Part shown: positions 1 through 20,319 of the stretch, one piece after another
Layout of the letters: each line of letters opens with the position of its first letter
How positions within the stretch are numbered: the first letter of the stretch is position 1
Notes under the pieces: model-generated
Seen by the model: the letters and a program-made list of their open reading frames with translations, nothing else
Database searches by the model: none
What the model was told of the DNA's origin: nothing
Program-made: the position numbers and the translations under genes
DNA from: an uncultured Flavobacterium sp.
GTDB taxonomy: Bacteria; Bacteroidota; Bacteroidia; Flavobacteriales; Flavobacteriaceae
Reading direction: 5' to 3'
Assembly (NCBI RefSeq): GCF_946479975.1
Contig: NZ_CAMLIX010000032.1
Coordinates: 1 to 29,755, forward strand
Length of the DNA: 29,755 nucleotides

Positions 1-464
1 ATAATTATTAATGACAATTGTGTTCATTGGAGTAGTTGATATATTTAAAACCAAAACTCTTGTTGAACTTTGAATAAATTCTGAATTCCAGATACCCAAT
101 TACTTTATTTACAATTAATTAATATTGCTTAACTTATTTTATGATTAAGTTCTATTTTTTTATCCATCAATAAAATAACAATATTTTTAAATGCTGTTTT
201 TTTTAATTTATTTATACAGAAAGAAATCAATTTTACTTCTAAGAATTTTAAAAGATTTCAATACATTAATCGCTTTTATTTTACAAGAAGGCATCAACAG
301 AACTACCTGATCATAGAATGTAAAAAAAAGTCATTATAAAGCAGAACAATTGCCAAAAAAAGCACATCAATGCTATTTTATAGTATAGATTTTTTTCTCT
401 ACATTTATTAGGTAAAAAACTAAATATTCAATTTTCCTTCAAAATTCATAACTAAATTTAGACC
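1..464. other. AT-rich intergenic region upstream of the two-component system
   Basis: No convincing coding sequence is visible on either strand in these 464 bases, which are very AT-rich. The left part holds a leftward promoter with a regulator box (52-87, listed separately). The rest should contain the promoter of the two-component operon. A TAGATTTT-like -7 element is visible at 386-393, but it has no well-spaced TTTG -33 partner, so I do not call it. The start codon of the first gene lies at 465. Confidence 0.6.
52..87 (-). promoter_or_regulatory. Leftward promoter with direct-repeat regulator box (box E)
   Basis: Read on the - strand, this is ATTCAG (87-82), 5 bp, ATTCAA (76-71), then GAGTTTTG (59-52) as a -7-like element. 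The half-sites are 11 bp apart. The last base of the -7 element is 19 bp beyond the end of the second half-site, the same geometry as the boxes at 2404, 5345, 16561, 19121 and 19238. The promoter points left, out of the window, so it should drive a - strand gene that begins before base 1. This would place the two-component genes divergently beside a probable target. Confidence 0.55.
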
Positions 465-1142
465 ATGAAAATTTTAATTATAGAAGATGAGCTGGAAATT
501 GCTCAAAGCATTAAAAATTATTTTAAGACTAATGGTATTCAATGCGAAACAGCAGAAAGCTATAATTTGGCATTGAATAAAATTGATTCTTATGATTATG
601 ACTGCATACTTCTGGATCTTATGATGCCTGACGGTGACGGATTTGATATATTAAGGGAACTCAAAAGAAAAAACAAAACGGATGGTGTCATTGTGGTTTC
701 TGCTAAAGAAACGCTTGAAACACGTTTGGAAGGATTCAATCTTGGTGCAGATGATTATCTTACCAAACCTTTTCATCTAGCCGAACTTTTGGTTAGAATG
801 CAGGCGTTAATCCGCCGCAAGAATTTTAAAGGGAGTAACAGCATTATATTCAATGAAATTGTAATTGAAATTCTCTCTAAAACTGTCAGTGTAAATGACC
901 AGAAATTAGATATTACCAAAAAAGAACTTGATTTGTTATTGTTTCTAATAGGCAATCAGGATAAAGTGTTATCAAAAGCTGCAATTGCCGAACATCTTTC
1001 CGGAGATATGGCAGATATGCTCGATAATCATGACTTTATTTATGCACACATCAAAAATCTCAAAAAGAAACTAACTCAGGCAGGAAGCGGCGATTATATT
1101 AAAACAGTTTATGGACTTGGGTATAAATGGGAAAATGAATAA
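465..1142 (+). CDS. OmpR/PhoB-family two-component response regulator
   Basis: This is a 225-residue transcription factor acting in the cytoplasm and activated by phosphorylation. The receiver domain (about 1-115) shows every expected residue: acidic pocket E7-D8, phospho-acceptor D51 in LLDLMMPDGDG, S79 as the switch hydroxyl, and K101 in DDYLTKPF. The C-terminal half (about 125-225) is a winged-helix DNA-binding domain ending in the typical TVYGLGYKWE wing. The start at 465 gives the canonical MKILIIEDE beginning. The stop overlaps the start of the next gene, a sensor kinase, by 8 bp, so the pair should be translated together. OmpR-family proteins bind 6-7 bp direct repeats with an 11-bp period, and such repeats lie in front of most transcription units in the next 20 kb. 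It is therefore the prime candidate for their regulator. The stimulus is unknown. Confidence 0.95.
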   Translation: MKILIIEDELEIAQSIKNYFKTNGIQCETAESYNLALNKIDSYDYDCILLDLMMPDGDGFDILRELKRKNKTDGVIVVSAKETLETRLEGFNLGADDYLTKPFHLAELLVRMQALIRRKNFKGSNSIIFNEIVIEILSKTVSVNDQKLDITKKELDLLLFLIGNQDKVLSKAAIAEHLSGDMADMLDNHDFIYAHIKNLKKKLTQAGSGDYIKTVYGLGYKWENE

Positions 1143-2400
1143 TAAAAAACTGCTTAACAAAACGACAAACAGCTTTCTTGCCTATGCTATCATCATTTTA
1201 TTGATAGCGGCACCATTATTTTATTTCATAAGCCAACAGCTTTATATTTATGAAACTGATGAAGTACTGCATTTTCATAAAGGTGCTTTTGTCAAGGAAA
1301 GCCATAAGGATTTTACACAGACTGATATTGATTTATGGAACAAATACAATCATGAAGTAATGATTGTTTCTGATATGGGTGTCAGGAGCGATTCTATAGT
1401 TGGTAAAATGCTCTATGATTCTATTGCAAAAGAACAGGAACCTTTTCGCGTACTCTATGCTCCCGTGAATATAAATGGAAAAAGATATACTTACACGGAG
1501 AGGATAAATTTATTGGAAATGGAAGGAATGGTCTTTAGCATTGCCGGCATGTTTCTATTTATTATTATTGTACTCCTGATTGGAATTATCTGGATCTCAA
1601 AAGCCACTGCCGCTAAAATCTGGAGCCCTTTTTATAATACGCTGAATCAGATTCAGGATTTTGAAATCGATAAAAATAAACCACCACATTTTATTGCGAC
1701 TGATATTGACGAATTTGACCGCCTAAATAAAAGTCTTGTAAGGCTTATCGAGAAAAACACAGCTATATACAAGAGTCAGAGAGAGTTTGTTGAGAATGCA
1801 GCCCATGAGCTTCAGACACCTTTAGCATTATTCCAAAATAAAATTGATACCCTGAGTCAGCTCAATTTGAATGAAGAACAATCTTCTCTGGTTACGTCTT
1901 TAAATACGGATATATCAAGGTTAAACAGGCTTAATAAAAACTTGTTATTACTCTCTAAAATTGACAACGAGAGTTTCCTTGACAGAAATACTATTGTACT
2001 TAATGACTATCTTAAAAAACATTTAGATTTTTTTACAGAACAGGCCAATGCTAAAAACTTAACGATTATCACTGAATTTACCTCTACTTTAAGTATAAAA
2101 GGAAATCCAGCCCTTACTGAGGTACTGATTAATAATTTGTTTTTAAATGCGATTCGTCACAATGAAAAAAATGGAAAAATCATTATTACAACCCTAGAGA
2201 ATGAATTAATATTTTTAAACACCGGTCAAAATACTCCTTTGAAAATTGAAAAACTTTTTAATCGATTTTCAAAAACTAATCCCTCTTCGCAGGGAAACGG
2301 CCTTGGTCTGGCAATAATCAAAAAAATAACGGAACTTAATCGTTGGGAAATAAGCTATACTTTCGATAATAATCTACATAGTTTCAGCGTCAAATTCTAA
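1135..2400 (+). CDS. Membrane sensor histidine kinase, partner of the regulator at 465
   Basis: This 421-residue inner-membrane kinase autophosphorylates on histidine and passes phosphate to its partner regulator. Transmembrane segment 1 is at about residues 14-36. A roughly 95-residue extracytoplasmic sensor region follows, and transmembrane segment 2 is at about 131-155. The dimerisation/phospho-acceptor helix has H224 in the H-box ENAAHELQTPLA. The ATPase domain shows the N-box (NNLFLNAIRHN, about 333-343) and the glycine-rich GNGLGLAI lid (about 387-395). I chose ATG 1135 (MNNKKLLNK) rather than the in-frame ATG at 1111, because the latter lies deep in the regulator gene. Start 1135 gives an 8-bp overlap typical of coupled regulator-kinase pairs. 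The sensor region resembles no ligand-binding fold I can name, so the signal cannot be predicted. Confidence 0.93.
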   Translation: MNNKKLLNKTTNSFLAYAIIILLIAAPLFYFISQQLYIYETDEVLHFHKGAFVKESHKDFTQTDIDLWNKYNHEVMIVSDMGVRSDSIVGKMLYDSIAKEQEPFRVLYAPVNINGKRYTYTERINLLEMEGMVFSIAGMFLFIIIVLLIGIIWISKATAAKIWSPFYNTLNQIQDFEIDKNKPPHFIATDIDEFDRLNKSLVRLIEKNTAIYKSQREFVENAAHELQTPLALFQNKIDTLSQLNLNEEQSSLVTSLNTDISRLNRLNKNLLLLSKIDNESFLDRNTIVLNDYLKKHLDFFTEQANAKNLTIITEFTSTLSIKGNPALTEVLINNLFLNAIRHNEKNGKIIITTLENELIFLNTGQNTPLKIEKLFNRFSKTNPSSQGNGLGLAIIKKITELNRWEISYTFDNNLHSFSVKF

Positions 2401-2403
2401 AAA

Positions 2404-2438
2404 ATTCAAACTTCCTACAGATTCATATTTGAACTTTG
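2404..2438 (+). promoter_or_regulatory. Promoter with weak direct-repeat box (box D) before the PepSY/receptor operon
   Basis: ATTCAA (2404-2409), 5 bp, CTACAG (2415-2420), then GAACTTTG (2431-2438). The half-sites match ATTCAG at 5 and 4 of 6 positions with the same 11-bp offset, and the end of the second half-site to the end of the -7 element is 18 bp. It begins just after the kinase stop (2400), and the next start codon is at 2474, leaving a leader of about 30 nt. This is the most divergent of the boxes I accept, supported mainly by its geometry. Confidence 0.5.
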
Positions 2439-2473
2439 TACTAGATTTTTTATCCATTAAAAAAATAGTACTT

Positions 2474-2902
2474 ATGAAAAATTCAATCCTAACATGTTTA
2501 GTCCTGCTTTTTTCTTCCTTTGCCATAGCGCAGAGCGTAAGTGAAAAAGACATCCCTAACATTGTAAAATCGACCTTTTTACTATCCTATCCTGACCAGA
2601 CCAATGTGAAGTGGGAAAAGGAAAAAGAAAATTATGAAGCCAGTTTTACCATAGGTAAAACAGATCGCTCCATGCTTGTAGATTCTAGTGGTAACATCAT
2701 AGAAACTGAAGAAGAAATCAGCGTAAAAAAACTTCCGGCCAAAGCCTTGGCTTACATCAAACAAAATTACAAAAACATAAAGATCAAAGAAGCTGCGATA
2801 ATAACGGACGCCCAAGGCATAGTTACTTTTGAGGCTCAGGTGACTTCTATCGACCTGATTTTTGACAAACAAGGAACTTATATTAAAAGCATAGCCGATT
2901 AA
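2474..2902 (+). CDS. Secreted PepSY-like protein
   Basis: This 142-residue exported protein has an N-terminal signal peptide (hydrophobic core about residues 5-16, cleavage after FAIAQ). The mature part has two half-repeats of the type seen in small Bacteroidota PepSY-like periplasmic proteins. In each, a short helix with 'vkWe..ke.YeA.F' is followed by strands and a 'D.sG.i.e' turn; here these are NVKWEKEKENYEASF with VDSSGNIIETEEE, and then a second unit ending VTSIDLIFDKQGTYIKSIAD. PepSY-like domains are thought to bind or inhibit partners in the envelope; the exact role here is not known. An ATG at 2429 is in frame, but it falls inside the promoter, so I start at 2474, which also gives the signal peptide. 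Only 11 bp separate it from the receptor gene, so the two form an operon and probably cooperate. Confidence 0.85.
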   Translation: MKNSILTCLVLLFSSFAIAQSVSEKDIPNIVKSTFLLSYPDQTNVKWEKEKENYEASFTIGKTDRSMLVDSSGNIIETEEEISVKKLPAKALAYIKQNYKNIKIKEAAIITDAQGIVTFEAQVTSIDLIFDKQGTYIKSIAD

Positions 2903-2913
2903 AACCTATACAA

Positions 2914-5325: not shown

Positions 5326-5344
5326 TTTTCTTAATAAGACGAAA

Positions 5345-5380
5345 ATTCAGTTTTAATTCAGAATTGAGTTGTAAACTTTG
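5345..5380 (+). promoter_or_regulatory. Promoter with perfect direct-repeat box (box A) before the LtaS-like/diacylglycerol kinase operon
   Basis: ATTCAG (5345-5350), TTTTA, ATTCAG (5356-5361) form a perfect 6-bp direct repeat with an 11-bp period. The -7-like element AAACTTTG (5373-5380) ends 19 bp after the second half-site. The start codon follows at 5401, giving a leader of about 15 nt. The box occupies the -33 region and no TTTG -33 is present, which fits activator-dependent transcription. Confidence 0.65.
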
Positions 5381-5400
5381 CGCCACAATATTAAGAAAAT

Positions 5401-7359
5401 ATGAAGAAACATTTACCAAAATTTGGCAGATATTCACTGCTGTTCCATTTTATGATCTGGTTTTTAATCGTGTCACAAATCTTACGATTTACTTTCTTTA
5501 TATGGCAATATGACGAAGTTACGTGGAATATTATTGATTTAGTCAGAACTCTTTTTACAGGTTTATTTTTTGATATTGGTACAATTACTTTTATATCACT
5601 GGCAGGAATTGTTTATTATACTATAATGCCTAACAGATTTATAGGAACCTTATTAGATAAAATATTGGTCTGCTTTTTTACGGCATTAACCACATTTATA
5701 CTTGTGTTTACCTTTTTTGCTGAATTAACATTCTGGGATGAATTTAAAACCAGGTTCAATTTTATTGCTGTAGATTACTTAATTTATACACATGAGGTTG
5801 TGGCCAATATTGAGCAATCATATCCTTTGCCGTTATTAATTGGAGGTGTATTATTATTAACAGCTGTTTTTCTTTTCATTTTTCACAAAAGAAAAGCTTT
5901 TACTGATACTTTTAGTTCTAAAGCTGGTTTAAAAACAAGAATTGTTGTACTGAGCTGTGCTTTGGCTATTGCTTTATTTTTTGGTTCTTTCATTCATAAT
6001 TATCAGGCAGAATGGTCATCTAACCGTTATAACTCTGAAATTTCTAAATCAGGAATTTATTCATTTTTTGCTGCCTTTAGAAACAACCAAATGAAGTATG
6101 TTGATTTCTATACTTCGATAGATAATGATAAAGCCTTTGGAATTATAAAAGAGAAACTTAAAGATCCAAATGCACGTTATAATTCTATGGGATATTCGAT
6201 CCACAGAACTATTACCGACAGTACCCCATCATTAGAAAACAAAAATGTTGTATTTGTGCTTGTAGAAAGCCTTAGCGGAAGCTTCCTGAAAGAATTTGGA
6301 AACAAAGAAAACATTACGCCTTTTATGGATAGTCTGGCCCAGAAAAGTATTTTCTTTAATGATCTTTATGCAACCGGAACTAGAACTGTGCGTGGTATGG
6401 AAGCTGTAACACTATGCATACCGCCAACTCCAGGACAGTCAATTGTAAAACGACCAGAAAACCAGAATCTTTATACGGTTTGCAGTGTTTTTAAATCGAG
6501 AGCTTATGATTGTAATTTCTTTTACGGCGGTGACGGTTATTTTGATAACATGAACGCTTATTTTGGCGGAAATGGCTTTACCATTTATGATCGCGGACGC
6601 GGAAGTGTTTTAAGTGATAAGATAAAAACAACACGAAATAATATCAATGATAACGAAGTAACGTTTGAAAATGCATGGGGAATTTGTGATGAAGATATTT
6701 TTAATAAAATGCTTAAAGTTGCTGATTCTCAATACAAAGACAATAAGCCTTTCTTTAATTTTGTAATGACAACTTCAAACCACAGACCTTTTACTTATCC
6801 CGAAGGAAAAATTGATATTCCGTCAGGAACGAGCCGTGAAGGTGCTGTAAAATATACCGATTTTGCTTTAAGACAATTGTTCAAAAAAGCAAGTACGAAA
6901 CCCTGGTTTAAAAATACTGTATTTGTGATCATTGCTGATCATTGTGCGAGCAGTGCAGGAAAAGATGAAATTGATGTTGCCAATTATCATATTCCAGCTT
7001 TTATTGTAAACTTACCGGAACAATACAATCAGAAAATAATGAAACAATGTTCTCAAATTGATCTTTGGCCCACTTTGTTTTCTATTTTTCACTGGAATTA
7101 TGAATCTGATTTTTTTGGAAAAAACGTTTTAGCTACAAAATTTGAAGAACGGGCTCTTATGGGAACGTATCGCAAACTTGTTTTGATGAAAAAAGAAAAA
7201 GTTATGATTCTTTCTGATCAGAAAAAACAGGCTTTTTACACTTGGAACAAAAGTGATAACAGCTTAAAATCAATACCAATGAATCAGTCCTTTTTGGATG
7301 AAACCATTTCGTGGTATCAAACTGCTGATTACCTTTTTACAAATAAACTTTTAAAATAA
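5401..7359 (+). CDS. LtaS-like membrane sulfatase-fold transferase (phosphoglycerol or phosphoethanolamine transferase family)
   Basis: This 652-residue inner membrane enzyme has five predicted N-terminal transmembrane segments (about 12-35, 45-75, 87-110, 143-162, 180-200). A large extracytoplasmic alkaline-phosphatase/sulfatase fold domain follows, from about 280 to the end. Visible catalytic features are the metal-binding glutamate E289 in VFVLVESLSG, the likely threonine nucleophile T329 in ATGTRTVRGMEA (aligned with the LtaS 'TGxxxT' nucleophile), and the late metal pair in VFVIIADHCASSAGKDE. In Gram-positives this family polymerises glycerolphosphate from phosphatidylglycerol. In Gram-negatives relatives add phosphoglycerol or phosphoethanolamine to lipid A, glycans or glucans and release diacylglycerol. 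The acceptor here is unknown. A diacylglycerol kinase gene begins 3 bp downstream, which supports a lipid-donor reaction. It is expressed from box A. Confidence 0.85.
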   Translation: MKKHLPKFGRYSLLFHFMIWFLIVSQILRFTFFIWQYDEVTWNIIDLVRTLFTGLFFDIGTITFISLAGIVYYTIMPNRFIGTLLDKILVCFFTALTTFILVFTFFAELTFWDEFKTRFNFIAVDYLIYTHEVVANIEQSYPLPLLIGGVLLLTAVFLFIFHKRKAFTDTFSSKAGLKTRIVVLSCALAIALFFGSFIHNYQAEWSSNRYNSEISKSGIYSFFAAFRNNQMKYVDFYTSIDNDKAFGIIKEKLKDPNARYNSMGYSIHRTITDSTPSLENKNVVFVLVESLSGSFLKEFGNKENITPFMDSLAQKSIFFNDLYATGTRTVRGMEAVTLCIPPTPGQSIVKRPENQNLYTVCSVFKSRAYDCNFFYGGDGYFDNMNAYFGGNGFTIYDRGRGSVLSDKIKTTRNNINDNEVTFENAWGICDEDIFNKMLKVADSQYKDNKPFFNFVMTTSNHRPFTYPEGKIDIPSGTSREGAVKYTDFALRQLFKKASTKPWFKNTVFVIIADHCASSAGKDEIDVANYHIPAFIVNLPEQYNQKIMKQCSQIDLWPTLFSIFHWNYESDFFGKNVLATKFEERALMGTYRKLVLMKKEKVMILSDQKKQAFYTWNKSDNSLKSIPMNQSFLDETISWYQTADYLFTNKLLK

Positions 7360-7362
7360 ATA

Positions 7363-8241
7363 ATGACTTATATTCATTTTATTATTAATCCAATTTCAGG
7401 AAGCGGCAAACATAACCTTGCCGCTTCTTATATTCTTCAGCATTTTCCAGCCTCAGAATATCAAATTGCAGTGGATTATACCAATCATAAAACGCATGCT
7501 GTCGAATTAACAAAAGCAGCAGTAAAACAGAATCCTGATTATATTGTAGCTTGTGGCGGAGATGGTACGATTAATGAAGTTGCCTCTTGTTTAGTAAACA
7601 CCAGAATTATTTTGGGAATTATTCCCGTAGGATCAGGAAATGGTCTTGCATCTAACTTAAATATTCCAAGAGATTTTAAAAAAGCTATTGACATTATCAA
7701 AAAAGGAAAAACAACTTTTATGGATGTTGGAAAAATAAACGATTTTTACTTTTTTAGCAATATGGGAATTGGTATTGATGCTTTAATTATAAAAAAATAC
7801 GAACGTTCCGGTAACAGAACATTATCTTCTTATGTAAAAGCTGCTCTATCGTCAAGTTTTCAATACAAGGCTAAACAGGCAATTATATCATTTGAGGATC
7901 AGAAGATAGAAGTGAATCCGTTTATGCTCTTTATCTCTAATTCAAACGAAATGGGATATAATATGAGCTTAACGCCAAAAGCAAGCCTTAGTGATGGAAT
8001 GTTAGATATGGTAATTATCCCGGAATTGTCTTTTATCGAAAAACTCTTATTGGGATTTAATGTGCTTCGAAATACAATTGAAAACTTCAAAAAAGCAAAA
8101 CATTATCTAGTAAATGAAGTGCACATCAAAATGCCTCAGAAGATCTATATAGACGCACAGATCGATGGTGAACAGTACAATATAAAAACTAACATCATAA
8201 ATGTACGCATCTTACCCAAAGCTTTGAAGGTACTGGTTTAA
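7363..8241 (+). CDS. Diacylglycerol/sphingosine kinase-like lipid kinase (YegS/DgkB family)
   Basis: This 292-residue soluble or membrane-peripheral kinase probably phosphorylates diacylglycerol to phosphatidic acid with ATP. The nucleotide-binding signatures are clear: FIINPISGSGK near the N-terminus (about 7-16), CGGDGTINEVAS (about 64-75), and IIPVGSGNGLASNLNIP (about 86-102). The C-terminal beta-sandwich ends with the 'IDGEQYN....INVRILPKALKVLV' region typical of the family, whose usual length is close to 300. It starts 3 bp after the LtaS-like gene and is surely cotranscribed. The pair makes biochemical sense, since the transferase would liberate diacylglycerol from phospholipid and this kinase would return it to phospholipid synthesis. 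A strong terminator (8247-8289) follows immediately. Confidence 0.9.
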   Translation: MTYIHFIINPISGSGKHNLAASYILQHFPASEYQIAVDYTNHKTHAVELTKAAVKQNPDYIVACGGDGTINEVASCLVNTRIILGIIPVGSGNGLASNLNIPRDFKKAIDIIKKGKTTFMDVGKINDFYFFSNMGIGIDALIIKKYERSGNRTLSSYVKAALSSSFQYKAKQAIISFEDQKIEVNPFMLFISNSNEMGYNMSLTPKASLSDGMLDMVIIPELSFIEKLLLGFNVLRNTIENFKKAKHYLVNEVHIKMPQKIYIDAQIDGEQYNIKTNIINVRILPKALKVLV

Positions 8242-8246
8242 TTTAT

Positions 8247-8289
8247 CTCTGAATAAATCCTGAATCAGGATTTATTCAGAGCTTTTTTT
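8247..8289 (+). terminator. Strong intrinsic terminator whose stem contains the regulator repeat
   Basis: A 16-bp perfect inverted repeat (8247-8262 with 8266-8281, loop of about 3-5 nt) is followed by C and seven T residues. It sits between the end of the lipid kinase gene (8241) and the converging glycosyltransferase gene (ends 8293), so it terminates the rightward operon. On the - strand the stem contains ATTCAG-GATTT-ATTCAG (8265-8249), a perfect copy of the promoter box found elsewhere in this window. No -7 element follows it at the expected distance. Confidence 0.9.
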
Positions 8290-8292
8290 GAA

Positions 8293-9345
8293 TCATCCCA
8301 GTAAAATACGGTCCATTTCTAGTATGTACAAATTTTTGTTGAACTTGATTTTAGTATCAATTCCAATGCTGCCGTCACCGTAAGGTTCATATTTTTTACA
8401 ATTGGAAACCGAAAAAAGCCCAACTACCGGTATATGAACCGATTTTGCTAAATGCATAATACCGCTATCGGCACCAATAAAAATTGCCGTATTAGCTATT
8501 ACTGAACCTATCTCACGAATGTCTTTACTGTAAAAAGTGGTTGCCTTAAATCGAATTTGAGAAGCATTTTCCAAAGGCAGGATTTCAATAATATTATAAT
8601 CCCGCTCATATTTCCTTTTTAACAGCTCATAAAAATCAGTCCACCATAACTCCGAATAACATTTATCACTTGTTGCATAAGTAAATATGGCAATTGTCTG
8701 TTTTTGGTTTTCAAATTTTCCGTTAAGAATTTTTCTACCCTGATTGATTTCTTCCTTACTTAATTCAAGATCGATAGTAGCAACTGGATTAGAATTTGTG
8801 GCAATACCCAAAGCTTTTAGATATTCCCTGAAATTGTAGACTGGATATTTCGCTATATGATGATAATCGTCTTGCTTTACCTCTTCATCATTTATAATAT
8901 CACCATAAAATTTATAAGCTGCTTGAGAGATTTCTACAGCTAATCTGCCTGATGAAGAATCCTTATCTACATTTAGCACCATATCGTATTTTTTGCGCTT
9001 AATGTTTAACCATACTCTTAAATACGCAAAAAGGTGATTAAAAGGCTTTTTTGGAAGCACAATGATTTCTCCAATCTGCGGATAATTTTTTAAAATTATC
9101 CGCATTAAACCTCCTTTTACAAAAAGATCAATCCTGGCATTGGGAAAAGTACTGCTGACTTCTTTAATTAAAGGCGTAATAAGCAGAAGATTTCCTAATC
9201 TGGCATTTGGCCGGCAAATTAGTATTTTTTTTATTTGAGCAGGATCTTCAATACTCTTTGAAGAAACTTTAGAGGTGCTCATATTTTTGGTAAAAAAACG
9301 CATAATACTTCTTCTTATACTATTTATATTTTTCGAAATTTTCAT
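8293..9345 (-). CDS. Glycosyltransferase family 9 protein (ADP-heptose:LPS heptosyltransferase-like)
   Basis: This 350-residue cytoplasmic or membrane-associated GT-B-fold enzyme probably acts in lipopolysaccharide core or another surface glycan. The N-terminal acceptor domain begins with KKILICRPNARLGNLLLITPLIKEVSSTFPNARIDLFV, the typical family opening (about 40-78). The C-terminal donor site shows the hallmark IFIGADSGIMHLAKSVHIPVVGLFS (about 290-315). The N-terminus carries a basic 35-residue extension before the domain; an internal ATG at residue 15 (MRFFTKNMST) is an alternative start. It is the last gene of a six-gene - strand run, 81 bp after the PAP2 phosphatase, with no promoter box of its own in the gap. 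Donor sugar and acceptor cannot be told from sequence. Confidence 0.85.
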   Translation of the reverse strand: MKISKNINSIRRSIMRFFTKNMSTSKVSSKSIEDPAQIKKILICRPNARLGNLLLITPLIKEVSSTFPNARIDLFVKGGLMRIILKNYPQIGEIIVLPKKPFNHLFAYLRVWLNIKRKKYDMVLNVDKDSSSGRLAVEISQAAYKFYGDIINDEEVKQDDYHHIAKYPVYNFREYLKALGIATNSNPVATIDLELSKEEINQGRKILNGKFENQKQTIAIFTYATSDKCYSELWWTDFYELLKRKYERDYNIIEILPLENASQIRFKATTFYSKDIREIGSVIANTAIFIGADSGIMHLAKSVHIPVVGLFSVSNCKKYEPYGDGSIGIDTKIKFNKNLYILEMDRILLG

Positions 9346-9426
9346 TTTTGCAATAAGGTTTTAAATGCTAAGGTTATAGCTTGTGGTATTTTATCTATTG
9401 TCTAAAAAATCAAATAATTAAATCTT

Positions 9427-10236
9427 TTAAAACTGTACAACCATTCCGCCGCCAAATTGTTTTCCGTTATAAAACGGCATCAACATTGAGGTAACTTTAT
9501 TTTCTTTTGAAGGGAAAATGCTGTTTTTTACATAAGGAAAAAGCCAGTAAGCTACCTTGGTACTTAATATTCCAATCCCAGCTCCGGCAGCTACATCAGT
9601 AAGCCAGTGTCTATTATTATACATTCTGAAAAGCCCTGTTCCAGTCGCTACTATATAGCCGCTGATTCCGTACCAAATTGATTTGTCTTTGTACTCCTGC
9701 CAAAGAAATTCGGCACCGGCAAAAGCATTTGCGGTATGCCCGGAAGGAAATGAATTATAAGATGTACCATCTGGCCTTTCTACGTGTGTAATCTTTTTTA
9801 AGGCAAAAACCGTAGTACTCATCATAAGATAAGAAGTAGCCAAAATGATCGATCTGTCCTTAAGATTGTTTTTACCCTTTATGCCCATCGCATTAAGCGC
9901 ATATACGGACGCTGCGGGCGCATATTGAGAGAAATCATCAATAGTGATTTTGTTATCAATATCCTCTTTTACCTCATCACGAATTTGAGAATTAAAGCCC
10001 TTAAGCCAGTCACTTTCCAAACCGATAAAACCATAACCAATTAAGACACCGGGAATAATTAACTGTTTGTAATTAAACTTTAAATTGTGTACTGTGTCTT
10101 TAACCATAAGAGTATCTGCCACATGTTTTTGTACCTGAACTACTGTATCTTTAACTACTACAATAGAATCTGCCACATGTTCTTGTGCCTGAAGGGCAGA
10201 AATACCCAAAACGAATAATAAAAAAGCTTTTAGCAT
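9427..10236 (-). CDS. Secreted/membrane PAP2-family phosphatase
   Basis: This 269-residue protein starts with a signal peptide (about 1-17, cleavage near LQAQ) and carries a type 2 phosphatidic acid phosphatase domain facing the periplasm. The three catalytic motifs are complete: K147-x6-R154-P155, P-S-G-H at 164-167, and R204-x5-H210-x3-D214 (HWLTD). The family removes phosphate from lipid phosphates such as phosphatidic acid, undecaprenyl pyrophosphate or lipid A; the substrate here is unknown. Between the signal peptide and the domain lies a duplicated segment, HVADSIVVVKDTV then HVADTLMVKDTV, encoded by a tandem DNA repeat. It sits 55 bp downstream of the RND pump gene and 81 bp upstream of the glycosyltransferase gene, so it is probably part of the YncE-headed operon. 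Confidence 0.88.
   Translation of the reverse strand: MLKAFLLFVLGISALQAQEHVADSIVVVKDTVVQVQKHVADTLMVKDTVHNLKFNYKQLIIPGVLIGYGFIGLESDWLKGFNSQIRDEVKEDIDNKITIDDFSQYAPAASVYALNAMGIKGKNNLKDRSIILATSYLMMSTTVFALKKITHVERPDGTSYNSFPSGHTANAFAGAEFLWQEYKDKSIWYGISGYIVATGTGLFRMYNNRHWLTDVAAGAGIGILSTKVAYWLFPYVKNSIFPSKENKVTSMLMPFYNGKQFGGGMVVQF
10091..10194 (-). repeat. Tandem duplication of about 51 bp inside the PAP2 gene
   Basis: Two adjacent, partly diverged copies (10091-10140, 50 bp; 10142-10194, 53 bp) encode the repeated HVAD...VKDTV linker of the PAP2 protein. The length difference is one codon, so the reading frame is kept. This looks like an in-frame duplication in a flexible periplasmic linker. Confidence 0.8.
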
Positions 10237-10291
10237 TTTAATAGAGATTAGAAATTAATATTACATTGACAATCAAACAGGTAGTTTTCTC

Positions 10292-13339: not shown

Positions 13340-13345
13340 AACGGT

Positions 13346-15500: not shown

Positions 15501-15530
15501 TTTATGAAGATTTTCAAAATTGATGTGAAA

Positions 15531-16538
15531 TTATTTTACGGTCAAGACTTTAAAAGTCCCAGGAATAATGACAGCACGCGGATTTGGGTTTTCTGCCGTT
15601 GCATCAGGAGTTTTTCCAAAAGAAGCTGTTGGCATATAAATCGTACCGGTTGCTTTGCTCATTGTAATTGTTCTGGCGCCTTTTGCAGTAGGAACAGTTT
15701 CTAAAACAGCATAGCTGTCTTTATTTTTTTGCTTAATTACAGTTAAAGTTCCTTCACCATTTGAACTAAATATCAGTTTTCGTTTTTCATCATAAAAAAC
15801 ACCATCAGAACCTTTGCCTATTGGCAGAGTTGTAACAACTTTACCTGTAATAGCATCAGTTACCACCATAATTGAGTTTCCGCAAACACTGAAAAGTCTA
15901 TTATTAACCACATCAAAAGCCAGTCCCGAAGGTTCATCTCCCGGACTTATATCAAAAGTTTTTACGACTTCTAGTTTGATGGCATCTATTACTTTTATTT
16001 GATTTTTATCTTCGATGTTTACATAGACCAAACCTTTTTTATTTGTTGCAGAAAATTCAGGTTTTCCGTCAAGCGGAATTGATTTTAGAACTTTATTAGT
16101 AACAGCATCTATAACCGTTGCATCATTGCTTTTGGCATTATAAACAAAGACTTTCTTAGAAAATTTATCATATAGTATAGCATCCGGTTTAACGCCCTGA
16201 ATAGTTACTTTTTCGATCAATTCAAAAGTTGTAAGATTAACAATTGTAACATCATTATCAGCTCCGTCAGATATAAAAGCTTTCTTAAGATCGTTATCAA
16301 TAGCAATACCGTGAACTCCTTTTGTATCGGGAATTACAGCTATTGCCTTATTCGTTTTTAAATCGATAACATTAACAACATTGCCATGAGATACAAATAA
16401 TCTTTGGGCCGGTTCATCAACAGATAAATAATCCCATCCAAGATCTCCCGCAACGGGAATTTCGTTGGATAATTTTAGATTTTGAGCTTGTGAAAAAGAG
16501 ACGAAAAGCGTAAACAAAAGCACAGATAAACATTTCAT
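15531..16538 (-). CDS. YncE-like secreted beta-propeller protein
   Basis: This 335-residue exported protein has a signal peptide (about 1-19, FSQAQ). Its whole length is made of seven-bladed propeller repeats of the YVTN/YncE type, for example RLFVSHG.VVNVIDLKTNKAIAVI, KAFISDGADNDVTIVNLTTFELIEKV, KVFVYNAKSNDATVIDAVTNKVLKSI and RLFSVCGNSIMVVTDAITGKVVTTL. The family is periplasmic and binds ligands or DNA, and no enzyme activity is established for most members. I chose ATG 16538 instead of the upstream in-frame TTG 16547, because it directly starts the signal peptide. It is the first gene behind box B and heads the efflux operon, an unusual partner for TolC/fusion/RND genes. A lactonase-like or ligand-sensing role is possible but not supported by specific residues. 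Confidence 0.85.
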   Translation of the reverse strand: MKCLSVLLFTLFVSFSQAQNLKLSNEIPVAGDLGWDYLSVDEPAQRLFVSHGNVVNVIDLKTNKAIAVIPDTKGVHGIAIDNDLKKAFISDGADNDVTIVNLTTFELIEKVTIQGVKPDAILYDKFSKKVFVYNAKSNDATVIDAVTNKVLKSIPLDGKPEFSATNKKGLVYVNIEDKNQIKVIDAIKLEVVKTFDISPGDEPSGLAFDVVNNRLFSVCGNSIMVVTDAITGKVVTTLPIGKGSDGVFYDEKRKLIFSSNGEGTLTVIKQKNKDSYAVLETVPTAKGARTITMSKATGTIYMPTASFGKTPDATAENPNPRAVIIPGTFKVLTVK

Positions 16539-16560
16539 AATAAGCAATTTAAACTCTAAA

Positions 16561-16595
16561 CAAAGTTGCTCATCAATCCTGAATTAAATCTGAAT
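16561..16595 (-). promoter_or_regulatory. Promoter with perfect direct-repeat box (box B) before the YncE-efflux operon
   Basis: On the - strand this is ATTCAG (16595-16590), ATTTA, ATTCAG (16584-16579), then CAACTTTG (16568-16561). The direct repeat is perfect with an 11-bp period, and the -7-like element ends 18 bp after the second half-site. The start codon at 16538 follows with a leader of about 17 nt. The spacer sequence after the second half-site (GATTGA) also resembles that of box A (AATTGA). Confidence 0.65.
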
Positions 16596-16645
16596 TAGTC
16601 CTTTGCCAATGCTTAATATTGTATTAAGAAATGCTGTCTTTTTAA

Positions 16646-19102
16646 TTAAATTGTTGGCTGTTGCGGTTCATTATTATGATCTGATTCTCCTTTTTTGAAT
16701 TCTAGTTTTCCAAATTTATAGCTAAGCGAAATCCCGAACGACTGAACAGGAACTTCCCTAATATTGACCTGATTAAAACTTTCTCCAAATTTGGTCGATC
16801 TTTGGTTCATGTATTTATTAAAAGGATTTGCCATTGTAACTCCTAAACTTGCTGCCTTATGCCAAAACTGTTTTCGAACTGCCAGATTATAGAAAAATGA
16901 AGAAGGACGCTCTCCCTGCAGGTTCTTTTGAGAAGAACGGTAATTTCCAAAAATTTCTGCCGTCATAGTAGGTTCAAACTGGTAACTTAAATTCAAATTC
17001 GCCCTGTAATTAAAACCACTTACACTTGTAAAACCAGGATTTGTAGTTGTTCTTTCTCCAAGTTCAATAGTCGATCTGATATTTAGTTTTTTATTGATGG
17101 ACAATGATCCAAAGATGCTTGCGCCAATATCAGTTTGAGAGCCAAAATTGTAACGCTGTGTTAAGGTTACATCTGTATAATCTGTTCCGTTGATATTTAA
17201 TGTTGGGTGAAATGTGGTAAAACTCTGGATATCTTGTGTATTACGTCGGTAGTATCCTGAAAAATAAATATTTGCTCCATTGGTAAACGTTTTACTATAT
17301 CCAAGTTCAAAACGATTACCAATTTCAGGTTTTAAAAATGGATTTCCTGTACTGATATTATGTGGATCACTAATATTAAAAAAAGGATTCAACTCTTCAT
17401 AATCAGGTCTTTCGATACGATAACTATAAGCAAATTTTATAGACTTGTCTTCACTAAATTTATGCTGAATCGTAAAAGATGGCGCAAAAGTATCATAGTC
17501 CGGTATGCTCACACCAACAAAATCCGCAGTTGTATTAGTACGCTCATAACGAAGTCCTGCTTTACCGTTTAAAAAACCATTAAATAATGCAAAAGAACTT
17601 GAAAAATAAGCCGAATAAATATTTCGTTTATAAGTAAAACCATAAGTCTGACCTACATTATTTATATAAGAACCATCGAGCGCCAAAGTATCTGTAACAA
17701 CATTACTGTTTATGGTTTCTAATGATATTTTAGATCCTGTTTCAAGCGTAAATCCTTTTGCAATTGGGGTTACAAAATCTAAAGCTATTTCTGTTTGATG
17801 ATCTTTTCCGGGATTGTAACTTCTAAGTCCTGAAACAGGATATACATCATCCTGATAAAGCGTTTGCTGTCCTGCATCATTTTGGCTTCTGCCATAACTT
17901 GATGTCACTAAAAAATCTAATTCCTGATCTTCTTTTTCGAAAATCTTTTTATAACCTAAACTCCAGTCAACAGCATTGTTTTTAAAATTACTTGTTGAGT
18001 TTCTTTCACTGTTAATCTGTGATAAGATAGTTCCATCAGACAAAGATGCTATTTGATTTTGCAGCGTCATTCCCGATGAATTATTTTCAAAATGATTATA
18101 GCCTAAAGTTCCCGTCAATTCATCTTTTGGGGTTATGCTCCAGTTTAAATTGATTCCGGTTTGGTATCCGCTTCTGGTAAACGGACTAACACCATTTTGA
18201 TACAATCTGTCAATACTGTCTCTTGCGGCATTATAAGAAACACGGTCACTTATACTTTTCGTTTTTGTATTTAATTGTTTGTTACCGCTAAAATAAATTC
18301 CCATTCCAAAATTTCCCTTGCGCGCATTCAAATTAAAGGAACCATTCTCTAAGCGTGTTCCGGCAGACAAATTAATACTGCTGTTAATTCCCTGAACTTT
18401 GCTTTCTTTAAGAACAATATTGATAATTCCTCCCGTTCCCGAAGCATCATATTTTGCACCAGGACTTGTTATCACTTCTATACTTTTAATCTGACTCGCC
18501 GGTATAGCCTGCAAGGCATCTGAAACACTGGCTCCAAATATACTGGAAGGTTTTCCGTTAATTAAAAATTTAATATTTGGATTTCCCTGTAATTCAACAT
18601 TTCCATCAATATCCACACTCACCATCGGAACGCTTTTTAAAACATCTGTTGCAGCACCGCCTTGACTTGTAAGATCGTTGGCGGTATTGTAAACCATTTT
18701 ATCAATTTTATTTTGAATTGTTGCTGTCTTTGAAATTATTTTAACTTCATCAAGCTGATTTGTTGAGGGCTGAAGTGAAACAGTTCCTAAATTAACCACA
18801 TTTTGACTTGCTGCAATAGTTACATTATTTAAAATAATTTCCTTGTAACTAATAAATTCTATAGCAATACGATACGATCCTTCGGGAAGATTATCTATCA
18901 AAAAAGAACCATTTTGATCTGTAGTAATTCCGTTAAAAGCTTTGGTTTCATTAGTTTTATAAATACTGATGATTGCCATTTCTATAGGTACTTTTGTTTC
19001 GGCATCCATCACTTTTCCTGTGATTTTTCCTTTATTGGAGTTAGATTGTGCAACAGTAGCAAGTGAAATAAAAAAAGCAATAGTTAAAATATAATGGCGC
19101 AT
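16646..19102 (-). CDS. TonB-dependent-receptor-like outer membrane protein (second member)
   Basis: This 818-residue outer membrane protein has a signal peptide of about 18 residues (ATVAQ) and a carboxypeptidase-regulatory-like domain (about 25-110: GKITGKVMDAETKVPIEMAIISI ... GSFLIDNLPEGSYRIAIEF). The plug domain (about 120-235) has GGAATDVLKSVPMVSVDIDGNVELQGNPNIKFLINGKPSS and IPASQIKSIEVITSPGAKYDASGTGGIINIVLKES. A long beta-barrel follows. The final barrel strand FGISLSYKFGKLEF is followed by a hydrophilic tail of about 20 residues, a trait I know from other members of this family. Ligand unknown. It has its own promoter with box C, and box B lies between it and the YncE gene, so the two are separate transcription units under the same control. 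Confidence 0.9.
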   Translation of the reverse strand: MRHYILTIAFFISLATVAQSNSNKGKITGKVMDAETKVPIEMAIISIYKTNETKAFNGITTDQNGSFLIDNLPEGSYRIAIEFISYKEIILNNVTIAASQNVVNLGTVSLQPSTNQLDEVKIISKTATIQNKIDKMVYNTANDLTSQGGAATDVLKSVPMVSVDIDGNVELQGNPNIKFLINGKPSSIFGASVSDALQAIPASQIKSIEVITSPGAKYDASGTGGIINIVLKESKVQGINSSINLSAGTRLENGSFNLNARKGNFGMGIYFSGNKQLNTKTKSISDRVSYNAARDSIDRLYQNGVSPFTRSGYQTGINLNWSITPKDELTGTLGYNHFENNSSGMTLQNQIASLSDGTILSQINSERNSTSNFKNNAVDWSLGYKKIFEKEDQELDFLVTSSYGRSQNDAGQQTLYQDDVYPVSGLRSYNPGKDHQTEIALDFVTPIAKGFTLETGSKISLETINSNVVTDTLALDGSYINNVGQTYGFTYKRNIYSAYFSSSFALFNGFLNGKAGLRYERTNTTADFVGVSIPDYDTFAPSFTIQHKFSEDKSIKFAYSYRIERPDYEELNPFFNISDPHNISTGNPFLKPEIGNRFELGYSKTFTNGANIYFSGYYRRNTQDIQSFTTFHPTLNINGTDYTDVTLTQRYNFGSQTDIGASIFGSLSINKKLNIRSTIELGERTTTNPGFTSVSGFNYRANLNLSYQFEPTMTAEIFGNYRSSQKNLQGERPSSFFYNLAVRKQFWHKAASLGVTMANPFNKYMNQRSTKFGESFNQVNIREVPVQSFGISLSYKFGKLEFKKGESDHNNEPQQPTI

Positions 19103-19120
19103 ATCAAAAATTTATAACGC

Positions 19121-19155
19121 CAAAATAATATCTTAATTCTGAATATATCCTGAAT
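19121..19155 (-). promoter_or_regulatory. Promoter with perfect direct-repeat box (box C) before the second receptor
   Basis: On the - strand this is ATTCAG (19155-19150), GATAT, ATTCAG (19144-19139), then TTATTTTG (19128-19121). The repeat is perfect with an 11-bp period, and the -7-like element ends 18 bp after the second half-site. The receptor start codon is at 19102. The box is back to back with box F, which faces the other way 83 bp to the right. Confidence 0.65.
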
Positions 19156-19181
19156 CTGTAATTTGTAATTATTTCTTAACA

Positions 19182-19193
19182 TTCAGGTCTGAA
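19182..19193. repeat. Short inverted repeat of the half-site between two divergent promoters
   Basis: TTCAG-GT-CTGAA is a palindrome made of two facing half-sites, midway between boxes C and F. OmpR-family proteins prefer direct repeats, so this may be an extra weak contact or chance. Confidence 0.3.
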
Positions 19194-19237
19194 CTTAGTG
19201 AGACAAAAAAAATCATCATTTGGTTAACTTTAAATGA

Positions 19238-19271
19238 ATTCAGAAAAAATTCAATTTTCATTACTTTATTG
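19238..19271 (+). promoter_or_regulatory. Promoter with direct-repeat box (box F) before the EamA gene
   Basis: ATTCAG (19238-19243), AAAAA, ATTCAA (19249-19254), then a -7-like CTTTATTG (19264-19271). The repeat period is 11 bp, with 11 of 12 half-site bases matching. The -7-like element ends 17 bp after the second half-site and is the least canonical of the set. The next start codon is at 19331. Confidence 0.5.
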
Positions 19272-19330
19272 CATCAATTAAAGTTCATCGATATCATTTT
19301 GAATCATTTATGAATTAAAAACCAAAAATT

Positions 19331-19747
19331 ATGTGGTGGATATTTGCTTTACTTTCTGCTTTCTTTGCTGCGCTCACGGCTATTTTTGCTAAAATAGGAA
19401 TCAAAGGCGTCGATACGGATTTGGCAACAGCAATTAGAACTGTAATTATCCTGATTCTTGCCTGGGGAATTGCTTTTTTCAGGGGCGGAACTAATAGCAT
19501 TCACTTATTAACAAAACAAAACCTGATTTTTTTATGCTTGTCGGGGATTGCCACCGGACTGTCATGGATATTTTACTTCAAAGCTTTACAAATCGGAAAA
19601 GTTTCGCAGGTCGCGCCGGTCGACAAAATAAGTGTTGCCATCGCAATCATACTTTCTGTGATATTTTTAAATGAAAAAATAAGCCCTCTTGGTATTGTTG
19701 GGGTCATTATGATTATTGGCGGTACGATAATCATCATATATAGTTAA
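19331..19747 (+). CDS. Half-size EamA-family (drug/metabolite) transporter
   Basis: This 138-residue inner membrane protein has a single EamA domain of about five transmembrane helices (about 2-22, 33-50, 64-84, 98-115, 120-137). Typical signatures are WWIFALLSAFFAALTAIFAKIGI at the start and SQVAPVDKISVAIAIILSVIFLNEKISPLGIVGVIMIIGG at the end. Full EamA exporters are about 280-300 residues with two such domains, so this one should act as a dimer, as other stand-alone halves do. It diverges from the second receptor, with box F upstream, and converges on the small gene at 19770. Substrate not predictable. Confidence 0.85.
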   Translation: MWWIFALLSAFFAALTAIFAKIGIKGVDTDLATAIRTVIILILAWGIAFFRGGTNSIHLLTKQNLIFLCLSGIATGLSWIFYFKALQIGKVSQVAPVDKISVAIAIILSVIFLNEKISPLGIVGVIMIIGGTIIIIYS

Positions 19748-19769
19748 TAATAAACACTATAGATAAGAA

Positions 19770-19967
19770 TTATAATACCAAGTTTGTAAAGATTTTTATG
19801 ATAAAAGTAAGCCAAAATAGAAGCGTTTTTCTTTTTTGCTTTTGCAAAGAAAAATTTTCGGATTGAAATTTTTCCCAAGAAGCCATTTTTATATCATTGG
19901 AATGCACAGGATAACTGTCATCCCACATTTTTTTTAATTCTACTTCCACTCTTTCTTCATTCATCAT
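19770..19967 (-). CDS. Small uncharacterised protein with one C-terminal membrane segment
   Basis: This protein of 65 residues, beginning MMNEERVEVELKKMWDD, matches no family that I recognise. The first 43 residues are charged and soluble (…MASWEKFQSENFSLQKQKRK), and the last 20 form a hydrophobic segment (LLFWLTFIIKIFTNLVL) reaching almost to the stop, so it would be a tail-anchored inner-membrane protein. The reading frame is open back to an ATG at 20084, but that longer version begins at the edge of the IS-associated repeat and spans a probable promoter (box G, 20042-20076), so I favour a start at 19967 or 19964. It faces the EamA gene with only 22 bp between stops. It could also be the truncated N-terminal half of an anti-sigma-like membrane protein. 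Confidence 0.5.
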   Translation of the reverse strand: MMNEERVEVELKKMWDDSYPVHSNDIKMASWEKFQSENFSLQKQKRKTLLFWLTFIIKIFTNLVL

Positions 19968-20041
19968 CTGAAAAGCTAGATCTGTTCGTAATTCTAAAAC
20001 TTCAAAAACGTATTTTTTTAGAACACATGTAAAAAACAGAG

Positions 20042-20076
20042 TAAAATTAAACAGACATTCTGAATTAATTTTGAAC
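20042..20076 (-). promoter_or_regulatory. Probable promoter with direct-repeat box (box G) before the small membrane protein gene
   Basis: On the - strand this is GTTCAA (20076-20071), AATTA, ATTCAG (20065-20060), then TAATTTTA (20049-20042). The half-sites match at 4 and 6 of 6 positions with an 11-bp period, and the -7-like element ends 18 bp after the second half-site, as in boxes B-D. If used, it forces the downstream start to 19967/19964. It lies 9 bp from the junction with IS-associated sequence. Confidence 0.4.
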
Positions 20077-20084
20077 TTCAGCAA

Positions 20085-20195: not shown

Positions 20196-20319
20196 TGGAG
20201 TTGATACCTTTTTTGCGACTAAACGCTTAGGCAGTGTTTATCTGAAGCAATAAAAAATGAGATATATTGCCTAAAATTTCTGACTGGTAGCTAATTTTAT
20301 TCCTGCAAATTTTAACCGC

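What the first reader, a model, noticed from the sequence alone, without database searches (positions are those of the whole stretch)
52..20076. A shared ATTCAG-N5-ATTCAG promoter architecture links at least six transcription units to the local two-component system
Direct reading finds 6-bp direct repeats with an 11-bp period, each followed 17-19 bp later by the last base of an ACTTTG-like -7 element. They lie at 52-87 (-), 2404-2438 (+), 5345-5380 (+), 16561-16595 (-), 19121-19155 (-), 19238-19271 (+) and probably 20042-20076 (-). Three are perfect 12/12 repeats (5345, 16579-16595, 19139-19155). Every one is oriented toward the next gene. An 11-bp direct-repeat period just upstream of the core promoter is the known mode of OmpR/PhoB-type activators, and exactly one such regulator is encoded here (465-1142). 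I saw none to the right of the IS element. This suggests a compact, previously undescribed envelope regulon of about 12 genes: PepSY protein, two outer membrane receptors, LtaS-like transferase, lipid kinase, propeller protein, efflux system, phosphatase, glycosyltransferase and EamA transporter.
Basis: partly seen in the sequence, partly recalled or inferred. Interest (0 to 1): 0.87.

Follow-up and report, generated by a model that had tools for sequence, protein, structure and literature searches.

The report
Self-regulated envelope gene switch in Flavobacterium
A cluster of cell-envelope genes in a Flavobacterium-like bacterium shares one 22-letter DNA switch that is most likely read by the regulator encoded in the same cluster, which gives a concrete, testable envelope-stress circuit.

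Summary
The motif is real. Exact ATTCAG-N5-ATTCAG occurs 5 times in the window and 0 times at any other gap from 0 to 20. The full site is two 11-bp units (ATTCAGAATTN) at about -39 to -18 of a TAnnTTTG promoter. An equivalent site ends 20-24 nt before the RR start in 55 of 65 distinct orthologues. A matrix trained only on those RR sites finds sites before PepSY 20 of 22, LtaS-like 18 of 19, OMP1 18 of 23 and PAP2 14 of 28, against 17 of 446 unnamed genes and 0.08% of shuffled regions. In RR-bearing genomes 39 of 45 strict hits lie within 20 kb of the RR. RRs with this recognition helix have a site upstream (62 of 68); others do not (0 of 39). The regulon claim is well supported, with corrections: one perfect repeat is a terminator hairpin, one lies inside a gene, and two listed sites are weak. 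Binding and activation are inferred. It resembles PmrA and BqsR/DbfR operators, in another phylum.

The parts
65..86 (-). Operator (22-bp box); -7 element down to 52; points at a PAP2-like phosphatase gene that lies just left of the window (read in G001)
   Evidence: PWM 24.3; G001 C23 homologue upstream of a 275-aa ORF that looks PAP2-like by eye; its relatives L006 and L014 are PAP2 by Pfam
426..447 (+). Operator of the RR gene itself (autoregulatory); ATG at 465 falls on the predicted +1, so the mRNA is predicted leaderless
   Evidence: PWM 29.0; site ends 20-24 nt before ATG in 55 of 65 RR orthologues
465..1142 (+). OmpR/PhoB-family response regulator
   Evidence: Response_reg + Trans_reg_C; best PDB matches DrrD and E. 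coli BasR/PmrA
1111..2400 (+). Sensor histidine kinase, NCBIfam PorY family
   Evidence: HisKA + HATPase_c; NF052314 430.9 bits against cut-off 350
2404..2425 (+). Operator of PepSY-OMP1 unit (weak in the window, conserved in relatives); -7 ends at 2438
   Evidence: PWM 10.5; 20 of 22 PepSY upstream regions carry a site at T=11, 22 of 22 at T=9
2474..2902 (+). Small secreted PepSY-like protein (ATG 2474; the TTG at 2429 lies inside the promoter)
   Evidence: PF11396
2914..5325 (+). Outer membrane beta-barrel protein OMP1, same unit as PepSY
   Evidence: PF14905
5345..5366 (+). Operator of LtaS-like/DGK unit; -7 TTTG ends at 5380
   Evidence: 12/12, PWM 26.2; 18 of 19 LtaS-like upstream regions
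5401..7359 (+). Membrane sulfatase-fold phosphotransferase (LtaS/phosphoglycerol-transferase-like)
   Evidence: PF00884; best PDB VP1736 3lxq, then LtaS
7363..8241 (+). YegS-type diacylglycerol/lipid kinase
   Evidence: PF00781, TIGR00147 above cut-off
8247..8281 (.). Bidirectional terminator hairpin that contains box-like repeats in both arms; not a promoter
   Evidence: 16-bp stem, -23.6 kcal/mol, z -6.7, followed by U7 on +; between convergent genes
8293..9345 (-). Family 9 glycosyltransferase, last gene of the efflux unit
   Evidence: PF01075; no own box, 0 of 5 upstream regions
9427..10236 (-). PAP2-family phosphatase
   Evidence: PF01569
10292..13339 (-). RND efflux pump
   Evidence: PF00873
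13346..14272 (-). Membrane fusion protein
   Evidence: PF16576
14265..15500 (-). TolC-like outer membrane efflux protein
   Evidence: PF02321; an 83% identical homologue in G306 has a strict site upstream on a contig without the RR
15531..16547 (-). Beta-propeller protein, first gene of the efflux unit
   Evidence: PF21783
16574..16595 (-). Operator of propeller/efflux/PAP2/GT9 unit; -7 down to 16561
   Evidence: 12/12, PWM 22.2; also in G001
16646..19102 (-). Outer membrane beta-barrel protein OMP2
   Evidence: PF14905
19134..19155 (-). Operator of OMP2; -7 down to 19121
   Evidence: 12/12, PWM 18.4; in G328 and G240 a strict site precedes an 80% identical OMP2, with a second strict site about 2.55 kb further on
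19238..19259 (+). Probable operator of the EamA gene (weak)
   Evidence: PWM 11.0; 3 of 3 EamA upstream regions, then G328 11.8 and G240 only 8.4
19331..19747 (+). Short EamA-domain transporter
   Evidence: PF00892
20055..20076 (-). Operator ahead of a small ORF that is intact in G001 and frame-shifted here, beside the IS
   Evidence: PWM 15.6; G001 comparison by eye

Best explanation
The sites are operators of the OmpR-type response regulator encoded at 465-1142. Each operator is two head-to-tail 11-bp half-sites (ATTCAGAATTN twice) on one face of the DNA, at about -39 to -18, in the place of the -33 element, and is read by two DNA-binding domains of the phosphorylated regulator. From there it would recruit RNA polymerase to a TAnnTTTG -7 element (class II activation, as recalled for PhoB and PmrA and as described for BqsR). 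The PorY-family kinase, probably modulated by the PepSY protein, senses an envelope disturbance and phosphorylates the regulator. This raises its own leaderless mRNA and six or seven transcription units for outer membrane barrels, a phospholipid-using phosphotransferase, the lipid kinase that recycles its diacylglycerol, PAP2 phosphatases, a glycosyltransferase and an efflux pump. Shown here: motif, spacing, position, conservation, linkage to the regulator and association with its recognition helix. Inferred: binding, phosphorylation dependence, activation rather than repression, the signal, and the biochemical role.
For: Gap-5 excess in the window and in 657 upstream regions of related loci (not freed of duplicate loci): 15 exact at gap 5 against 0 at 15 other gaps; 11 or more of 12: 43 against at most 13. 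RR-upstream site at fixed distance in 55 of 65. Matrix trained on RR sites alone predicts neighbour sites. Association over 299 genomes and linkage 39 of 45. An efflux operon of G306, on a contig without the RR, keeps the site. OMP2 site kept in G328 and G240. Helix class with site 62 of 68 against 0 of 39; L243, L244 and L245, outside the training set, all have one. Residue/base covariation. The -7 position -12 to -5 is from PMC9723704 (passages).
Against: No binding or expression data. In G001 87 sites have at most one mismatch, so the 12-letter core alone is not specific. 26 of 57 RR genomes have no strict hit. Six helix-class RRs lack a site upstream: L035, L037, L039, L040, L128, L234. 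PAP2 14 of 28, OMP2 3 of 8, propeller 2 of 4. At 10 of 12 letters gaps 1 and 12 are also raised (64 and 58 against 93), because the motif itself extends at that phase. The helix association is partly circular (most class members trained the matrix) and related species are counted throughout. The covariation needs only one or two changes on the tree. 2404 and 19238 are weak in this window.
Confidence: 0.82

Rival explanations
1. The site is read by a different OmpR-type regulator, or jointly by the second, 90% identical copy of this module that G001 carries elsewhere, so the local two-component system is only one of its users.
For: G001 has a second RR-HK-PepSY-OMP1 module whose recognition helix is identical over DNHDFIYAHIKNLKKKL; both would read the same operator. 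It is not known whether the window's genome has it.
Against: Across 299 genomes strict sites go with this RR family and mostly lie beside it; RRs with other helices have no site upstream, 0 of 39.
Confidence: 0.1
2. The regulator represses rather than activates: the operator overlaps the -33 region and would block RNA polymerase.
For: Position overlaps where a -33 element would lie; autoregulatory sites are often repressive (recalled).
Against: Orientation and distance to the -7 element are nearly fixed (of 43 sites 21 have TTTG, 15 of them at +14), which fits contact with polymerase; BqsR, with the same geometry, activates (PMC4682146, passages).
Confidence: 0.1
3. Shared promoters are duplicated or AT-rich sequence with no common regulator.
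For: 34% GC; the single half-site pair is frequent at many gaps in whole genomes; one perfect copy is a hairpin and one is coding.
Against: Among exact pairs upstream of genes only gap 5 is seen; shuffled-region rate 0.08%; sites kept over 58-93% identical RRs in several families of Bacteroidota.
Confidence: 0.03

Closest known systems
BqsRS / CarRS (Pseudomonas aeruginosa) and DbfQRS (Vibrio cholerae)
   Same: PepSY protein beside an OmpR-type RR and a kinase; operator of two short direct repeats with an 11-bp period (BqsR TTAAG-N6-TTAAG; here TTCAG-N6-TTCAG), one of which BqsR shares with polymerase; DbfQRS responds to LPS defects and polymyxin (PMC4682146 passages; PMC12714742 passages and section 9).
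   Different: Other phylum; kinase is PorY family; half-site differs by one base; target genes here are LtaS-like, PAP2, lipid kinase, barrels and an efflux unit. The passage on that paper's survey names Proteobacteria, Terrabacteria and Fusobacteria, not Bacteroidota (the supplement was not seen).
PmrAB / BasRS (Enterobacteriaceae)
   Same: RR aligns over its full length to E. coli BasR, E 1.1e-32; direct-repeat operator YTTAAK (Salmonella, passage of PMC10927774); envelope lipid modification theme (recalled).
   Different: RR scores 151.8 against a cut-off of 330 for the PmrA family; different half-site, kinase family and gene set.
PorY/PorX/SigP (Porphyromonas gingivalis)
   Same: The kinase passes the NCBIfam PorY-family cut-off.
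   Different: PorY is an orphan gene that phosphorylates PorX (PMC4800418 passages); here the kinase overlaps an OmpR-type RR gene and no type IX secretion gene was recognised among the window's units.
PhoB boxes
   Same: 11-bp-period direct repeats upstream of the core promoter (recalled).
   Different: Different sequence (recalled); RR below the PhoB cut-offs.

Membership tests
OmpR/PhoB-family response regulators | Receiver plus winged-helix Trans_reg_C domain | tested here: met
   PF00072 and PF00486 above cut-off
OmpR/PhoB-family response regulators | Direct-repeat operator with 11-bp period next to the core promoter | tested here: met
   (by sequence only)
OmpR/PhoB-family response regulators | Phosphorylation-dependent binding to that operator | not testable with these tools
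   Needs protein
DbfQRS / BqsRS-type PepSY two-component module | Small secreted PepSY protein gene beside RR and kinase genes | tested here: met
   PepSY_like by Pfam in L010 and L035
DbfQRS / BqsRS-type PepSY two-component module | Operator TTAAG-N6-TTAAG | tested here: not met
   TTCAG-N6-TTCAG here: same spacing, one base different
DbfQRS / BqsRS-type PepSY two-component module | PepSY protein acts on the kinase sensor; response to LPS damage | not testable with these tools
   Described for V. cholerae in PMC12714742
PmrA (NCBIfam NF007928) | Curated family score | tested here: not met
   151.8 bits against 330
PorY-family sensor kinase (NF052314) | Curated family score | tested here: met
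   430.9 bits against 350
PorXY-SigP cascade | Orphan kinase acting on PorX | tested here: not met
   Kinase gene overlaps its own OmpR-type RR gene, so it is not an orphan. Whether it also acts on PorX was not tested

The most novel reading that the evidence does not exclude
A Bacteroidota-wide envelope regulon, so far undescribed, in which a PorY-family kinase paired with an OmpR-type regulator and a PepSY protein controls phospholipid-dependent surface modification. Its operator code can be read directly from the recognition helix, and its regulator is made from a leaderless, self-activated mRNA with an SM5-like -7 element (TAnnTTGY), i.e. possibly under another sigma factor than its targets.
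Probability: 0.4. Interest if true: 0.72.

Novelty: new member of a known kind. Interest (0 to 1): 0.56.

Why it matters
In the listings of six searches of one open-access library (some searches showed only 20 of 33, 12 of 499 and 12 of 168 papers) I saw no described operator for an OmpR-type envelope regulator of flavobacteria. The site now has a 22-bp definition, an exact promoter position, a list of target units and a natural series of regulators in which helix and operator change together, so binding, regulon and signal can each be tested with single experiments. It also suggests that kinases named PorY after a secretion regulator have, in flavobacteria, a partner and role of their own.

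Tried and rejected
Mismatch-tolerant scans of the 12-letter core: too loose (63 against 47.5 +/- 7.3 in the window; 87 sites with at most one mismatch in G001); replaced by spacing controls, a 22-bp matrix and the -7 element.

The perfect repeat at 8249 as a hidden promoter: rejected because it sits in a strong hairpin between convergent genes. L001 has a hairpin without the repeat at the same place (by eye). That a terminator should hold an exact copy is still odd.

ORF 19770-20084 (104 aa, TTG start) as the seventh target: no Pfam or NCBIfam match; it reads through the operator itself. A small ORF behind the operator is intact in G001 and frame-shifted in the window.

G001 C19:23473 as a displaced EamA gene: the 17 letters match window 19238 exactly, but no EamA homologue was found in the stretch fetched there, so treated as chance.

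The second efflux pair right of the IS (24637-29269) as a negative control: dropped. No site lies there inside the window, but the next gene upstream runs to 29745 of 29755, so the promoter of that unit is probably outside the window.

L128 as an RR with another helix and no site: dropped on re-check. Its helix is of the same class, so it is counted as an exception without a site.

Distant regulon members: a looser pattern in 57 RR genomes gave 84 hits, 44 within 20 kb of an RR; the 40 others compare with about 25 for the reversed pattern (my sum of the table), so most are probably background. Of these only the G306 efflux gene was followed up, and it was convincing.

Plasmid origin of window 1-8300: no match in the plasmid collection in 'near' mode. 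No structure predictions or large protein searches were run.


Full report
WHAT WAS CLAIMED AND WHAT IS THERE. The window is 34% GC, closest to Flavobacterium among the sequences found. Exact ATTCAG-N5-ATTCAG occurs five times; the same pair at any other gap from 0 to 20 occurs zero times. The other two it did not list: 26789-26805(-), inside an RND efflux gene, and 8249-8265(-), which with 8263-8279(+) forms a 16-bp hairpin followed by seven U's between the convergent genes ending at 8241 and 8293, i.e. a two-way terminator.

THE MISSING SITE. Related loci were fetched by the RR protein (79 loci, L001-L047 being 58-93% identical relatives in Bacteroidota plus one record labelled Chlorobiota). 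Alignment of their sites showed that many lie just before the RR gene. With minus-strand loci turned round, 85 RR loci gave 65 distinct upstream regions. 55 of the 65 have at least 8 of 12 core letters with the site ending 20-24 nt before the ATG; at 40-45 nt the count is 0, at 0-5 nt 3, at 30-35 nt 22. Eight of 12 anywhere in the 80 nt is not discriminating by itself (gap 5: 58, gap 12: 57, shuffles about 19 of 65); at 10 or more the counts are gap 5 35, gap 12 26, gap 1 15, all other gaps to 11 at most 6, shuffles 0.2. Gaps 1 and 12 are raised because the motif continues as ATTCAG-N-ATTG. Of 32 RRs of other kinds (L048-L079) none has 8 of 12 at 20-24 nt, but for these the start was inferred from the match and only 7 of 32 show a start codon there; with 200 nt upstream searched, none of these nor of 7 sister-clade RRs reaches matrix score 9 (0 of 39). 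The window has the RR site at 426-447, three core mismatches, matrix score 29.0, the best in the window.

THE FULL SITE. The 43 sites with at most one core mismatch give ATTCAG AATTA ATTCAG AATTG, that is two 11-bp units, then TA and TTTG; TTTG starts 14 nt after the core in 15, 15 nt in 4, 13 nt in 2; the other 22 have no exact TTTG there. In F. psychrophilum the -7 element TAnnTTTG spans -12 to -5 (PMC9723704, passages). That places the site at about -39 to -18 and the RR start codon at +1. RR promoters mostly have TAnnTTGY instead (24 of 55, or 34 with nAnnTTGY; TAnnTTTG 5, TAnnTTTH 7, none 9). This equals motif SM5 of that paper, which its authors think most likely under an alternative sigma factor. 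RR mRNAs are thus predicted to be leaderless; the paper puts leaderless mRNAs at 5.5%.

CROSS-PREDICTION. A 22-bp matrix built only from 55 RR-upstream sites was run over upstream regions of the window and related loci, identical regions dropped. At a threshold of 11, passed by 0.08% of shuffled regions, it found PepSY 20 of 22, LtaS-like 18 of 19, OMP1 18 of 23, PAP2 14 of 28, EamA 3 of 3, OMP2 3 of 8, propeller 2 of 4, DGK 2 of 4, OEP 1 of 6, the region before the 104-aa ORF in G001 1 of 1, and 17 of 446 unnamed genes; GT9 0 of 5, RND 0 of 4, chloride channel 0 of 3, DUF1573 0 of 1, HK 0 of 1; the RR genes themselves, mostly training data, 50 of 56. In the window's regulon the genes without a site of their own are inside operons. 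I translated 16 unnamed ORFs with sites and put five to Pfam: two PAP2, two PepSY-like, one Omp85. In the window alone six sites score 15 or more; 60 simulated windows average 0.23, maximum 3. The sites at 2404 and 19238 score only 10.5 and 11.0, no more than a coding stretch at 16772 (11.9), and rest on conservation. For EamA two further genomes gave 11.8 (G328) and 8.4 (G240, below threshold).

GENOMES. Over 299 genomes of the genus a strict pattern (core, ATT extension, TTTG at the right distance) hits 31 of 57 genomes with the RR (E <= 1e-80) and 16 of 242 without; 39 of 45 hits in RR genomes are within 20 kb of the RR, a zone of about 0.9% of that DNA if genomes average 4.8 Mb; the reversed pattern hits 3 of 299 genomes (the last by reading the table). 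Species are related, so the p-values printed there overstate. G001, 97% identical over window 1-15438, has 4 exact sites in 6.5 Mb, 3 in this locus, one of these being the terminator. In G306 a strict site on a contig without the RR precedes an OEP gene 83% identical to the window's. In G328 and G240 a strict site precedes an OMP2 80% identical to the window's, beside a divergent EamA gene 96-98% identical, with a second strict site about 2.55 kb further: the window's arrangement (2.56 kb).

WHICH PROTEIN READS IT. RRs whose recognition region reads like DNHDFxYAH(I/V)KN have a matrix hit of 11 or more upstream in 62 of 68; others 0 of 39 (one search gave 62 of 67 and 0 of 40 because its word for the helix missed L128, which has the helix and no site). 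Most of the 68 trained the matrix, so the clean part is: L243, L244 and L245 (57, 57 and 49% identical overall, same helix, not in the training set) have sites, at 52, 23 and 35 nt before the start; sister-clade RRs L237-L242 and L246 (43-52%, YSQ, YNH or YTH in place of YAH) do not. Six helix-class RRs have none: L035, L037, L039, L040, L128, L234. Among helix-class RRs with a site, N in place of K in KNLKxK goes with T at base 5 of both half-sites in 4 of 5 and of one in the fifth; with K, 0 of 49 have both and 3 have one; with R, one of 2 has one (the other rows of the 65 were set aside by that script for lack of a site or of a helix match). On the best RR tree N needs two changes, and one is not ruled out; a K member inside that clade (L047) has A again, the other (L035) has no site. 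This is suggestive, not many independent events.

WHAT THE UNITS DO. RR-HK; PepSY-OMP1; LtaS-like/lipid kinase; propeller-OEP-MFP-RND-PAP2-GT9; OMP2; EamA; a PAP2-like gene left of the window; and a small broken ORF. Parts of this gene set recur beside the RR in many related loci. From general knowledge of LtaS, OpgB and EptA, enzymes of this fold take a head group from a phospholipid and leave diacylglycerol, which a lipid kinase recycles. With PAP2, GT9 and outer membrane barrels this suggests surface glycolipid modification. This is inference; the PAP2 has only a weak LpxE hint (27.4 bits against 177) and no PDB match, and the best solved relative of the LtaS-like protein is an uncharacterised Vibrio protein.

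COMPARISON. BqsR reads TTAAG-N6-TTAAG and one pentamer doubles as a polymerase contact (PMC4682146, passages); here it is TTCAG-N6-TTCAG at the same spacing. DbfQ, a PepSY protein beside DbfRS, acts on that kinase, and the system answers to LPS defects and polymyxin (PMC12714742, passages and section 9). Salmonella PmrA uses YTTAAK direct repeats (PMC10927774, passage). PMC5636140 (abstract only) links the same V. cholerae kinase, VC1639, to polymyxin. The kinase here is PorY family, yet PorY of P. gingivalis is an orphan acting on PorX (PMC4800418, passages). So it works like BqsRS/DbfQRS and PmrAB, belongs to the OmpR/PhoB family, and is not PmrA or PorXY by the tests made.

VERDICT. It is a new member of a known kind; binding, sign and signal remain to be shown.

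Noticed in passing
window 8247-8281: A two-way terminator hairpin whose arms carry an exact and a near-exact operator; conserved in G001, absent from the L001 hairpin at the same place. Chance, or a terminator that grew out of, or also serves as, a binding site.
   Followed up: partly
L131-L132 (G001 contig C26): A second RR-HK-PepSY-OMP1 module, RR 90% identical, in the nearest held genome; likely to read the same operator.
   Followed up: partly
window 426-465 and RR-upstream regions: RR promoters mostly carry TAnnTTGY (SM5-like) -7 elements while target promoters more often carry TTTG; RR mRNAs predicted leaderless.
   Followed up: partly
window 20085-20316: Left of the IS3-type transposase genes a 42-bp exact and a 65-bp 80% direct repeat with 134-135 bp spacing, as if the element's left end were duplicated; the element abuts the operator at 20055-20076.
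   Followed up: partly
window 24637-29269: A second RND efflux pair (OEP and AcrB-type); no operator inside the window, but its own promoter probably lies beyond the window's end.
   Followed up: partly
window 17669-19760 against G001 C23: G001 lacks this stretch (start of OMP2, both operators, EamA) at this place; its OMP2 is a remnant (alignment).
   Followed up: partly
L237-L242, L246: A sister clade of RRs (43-52% identical, several beside kinases that pass the PorY-family cut-off) lacks this operator; L237 and L238 share a TATATTTGATATACC stretch before the RR gene. L241 has propeller, GT9, PAP2 and PepSY homologues nearby but no site.
   Followed up: no
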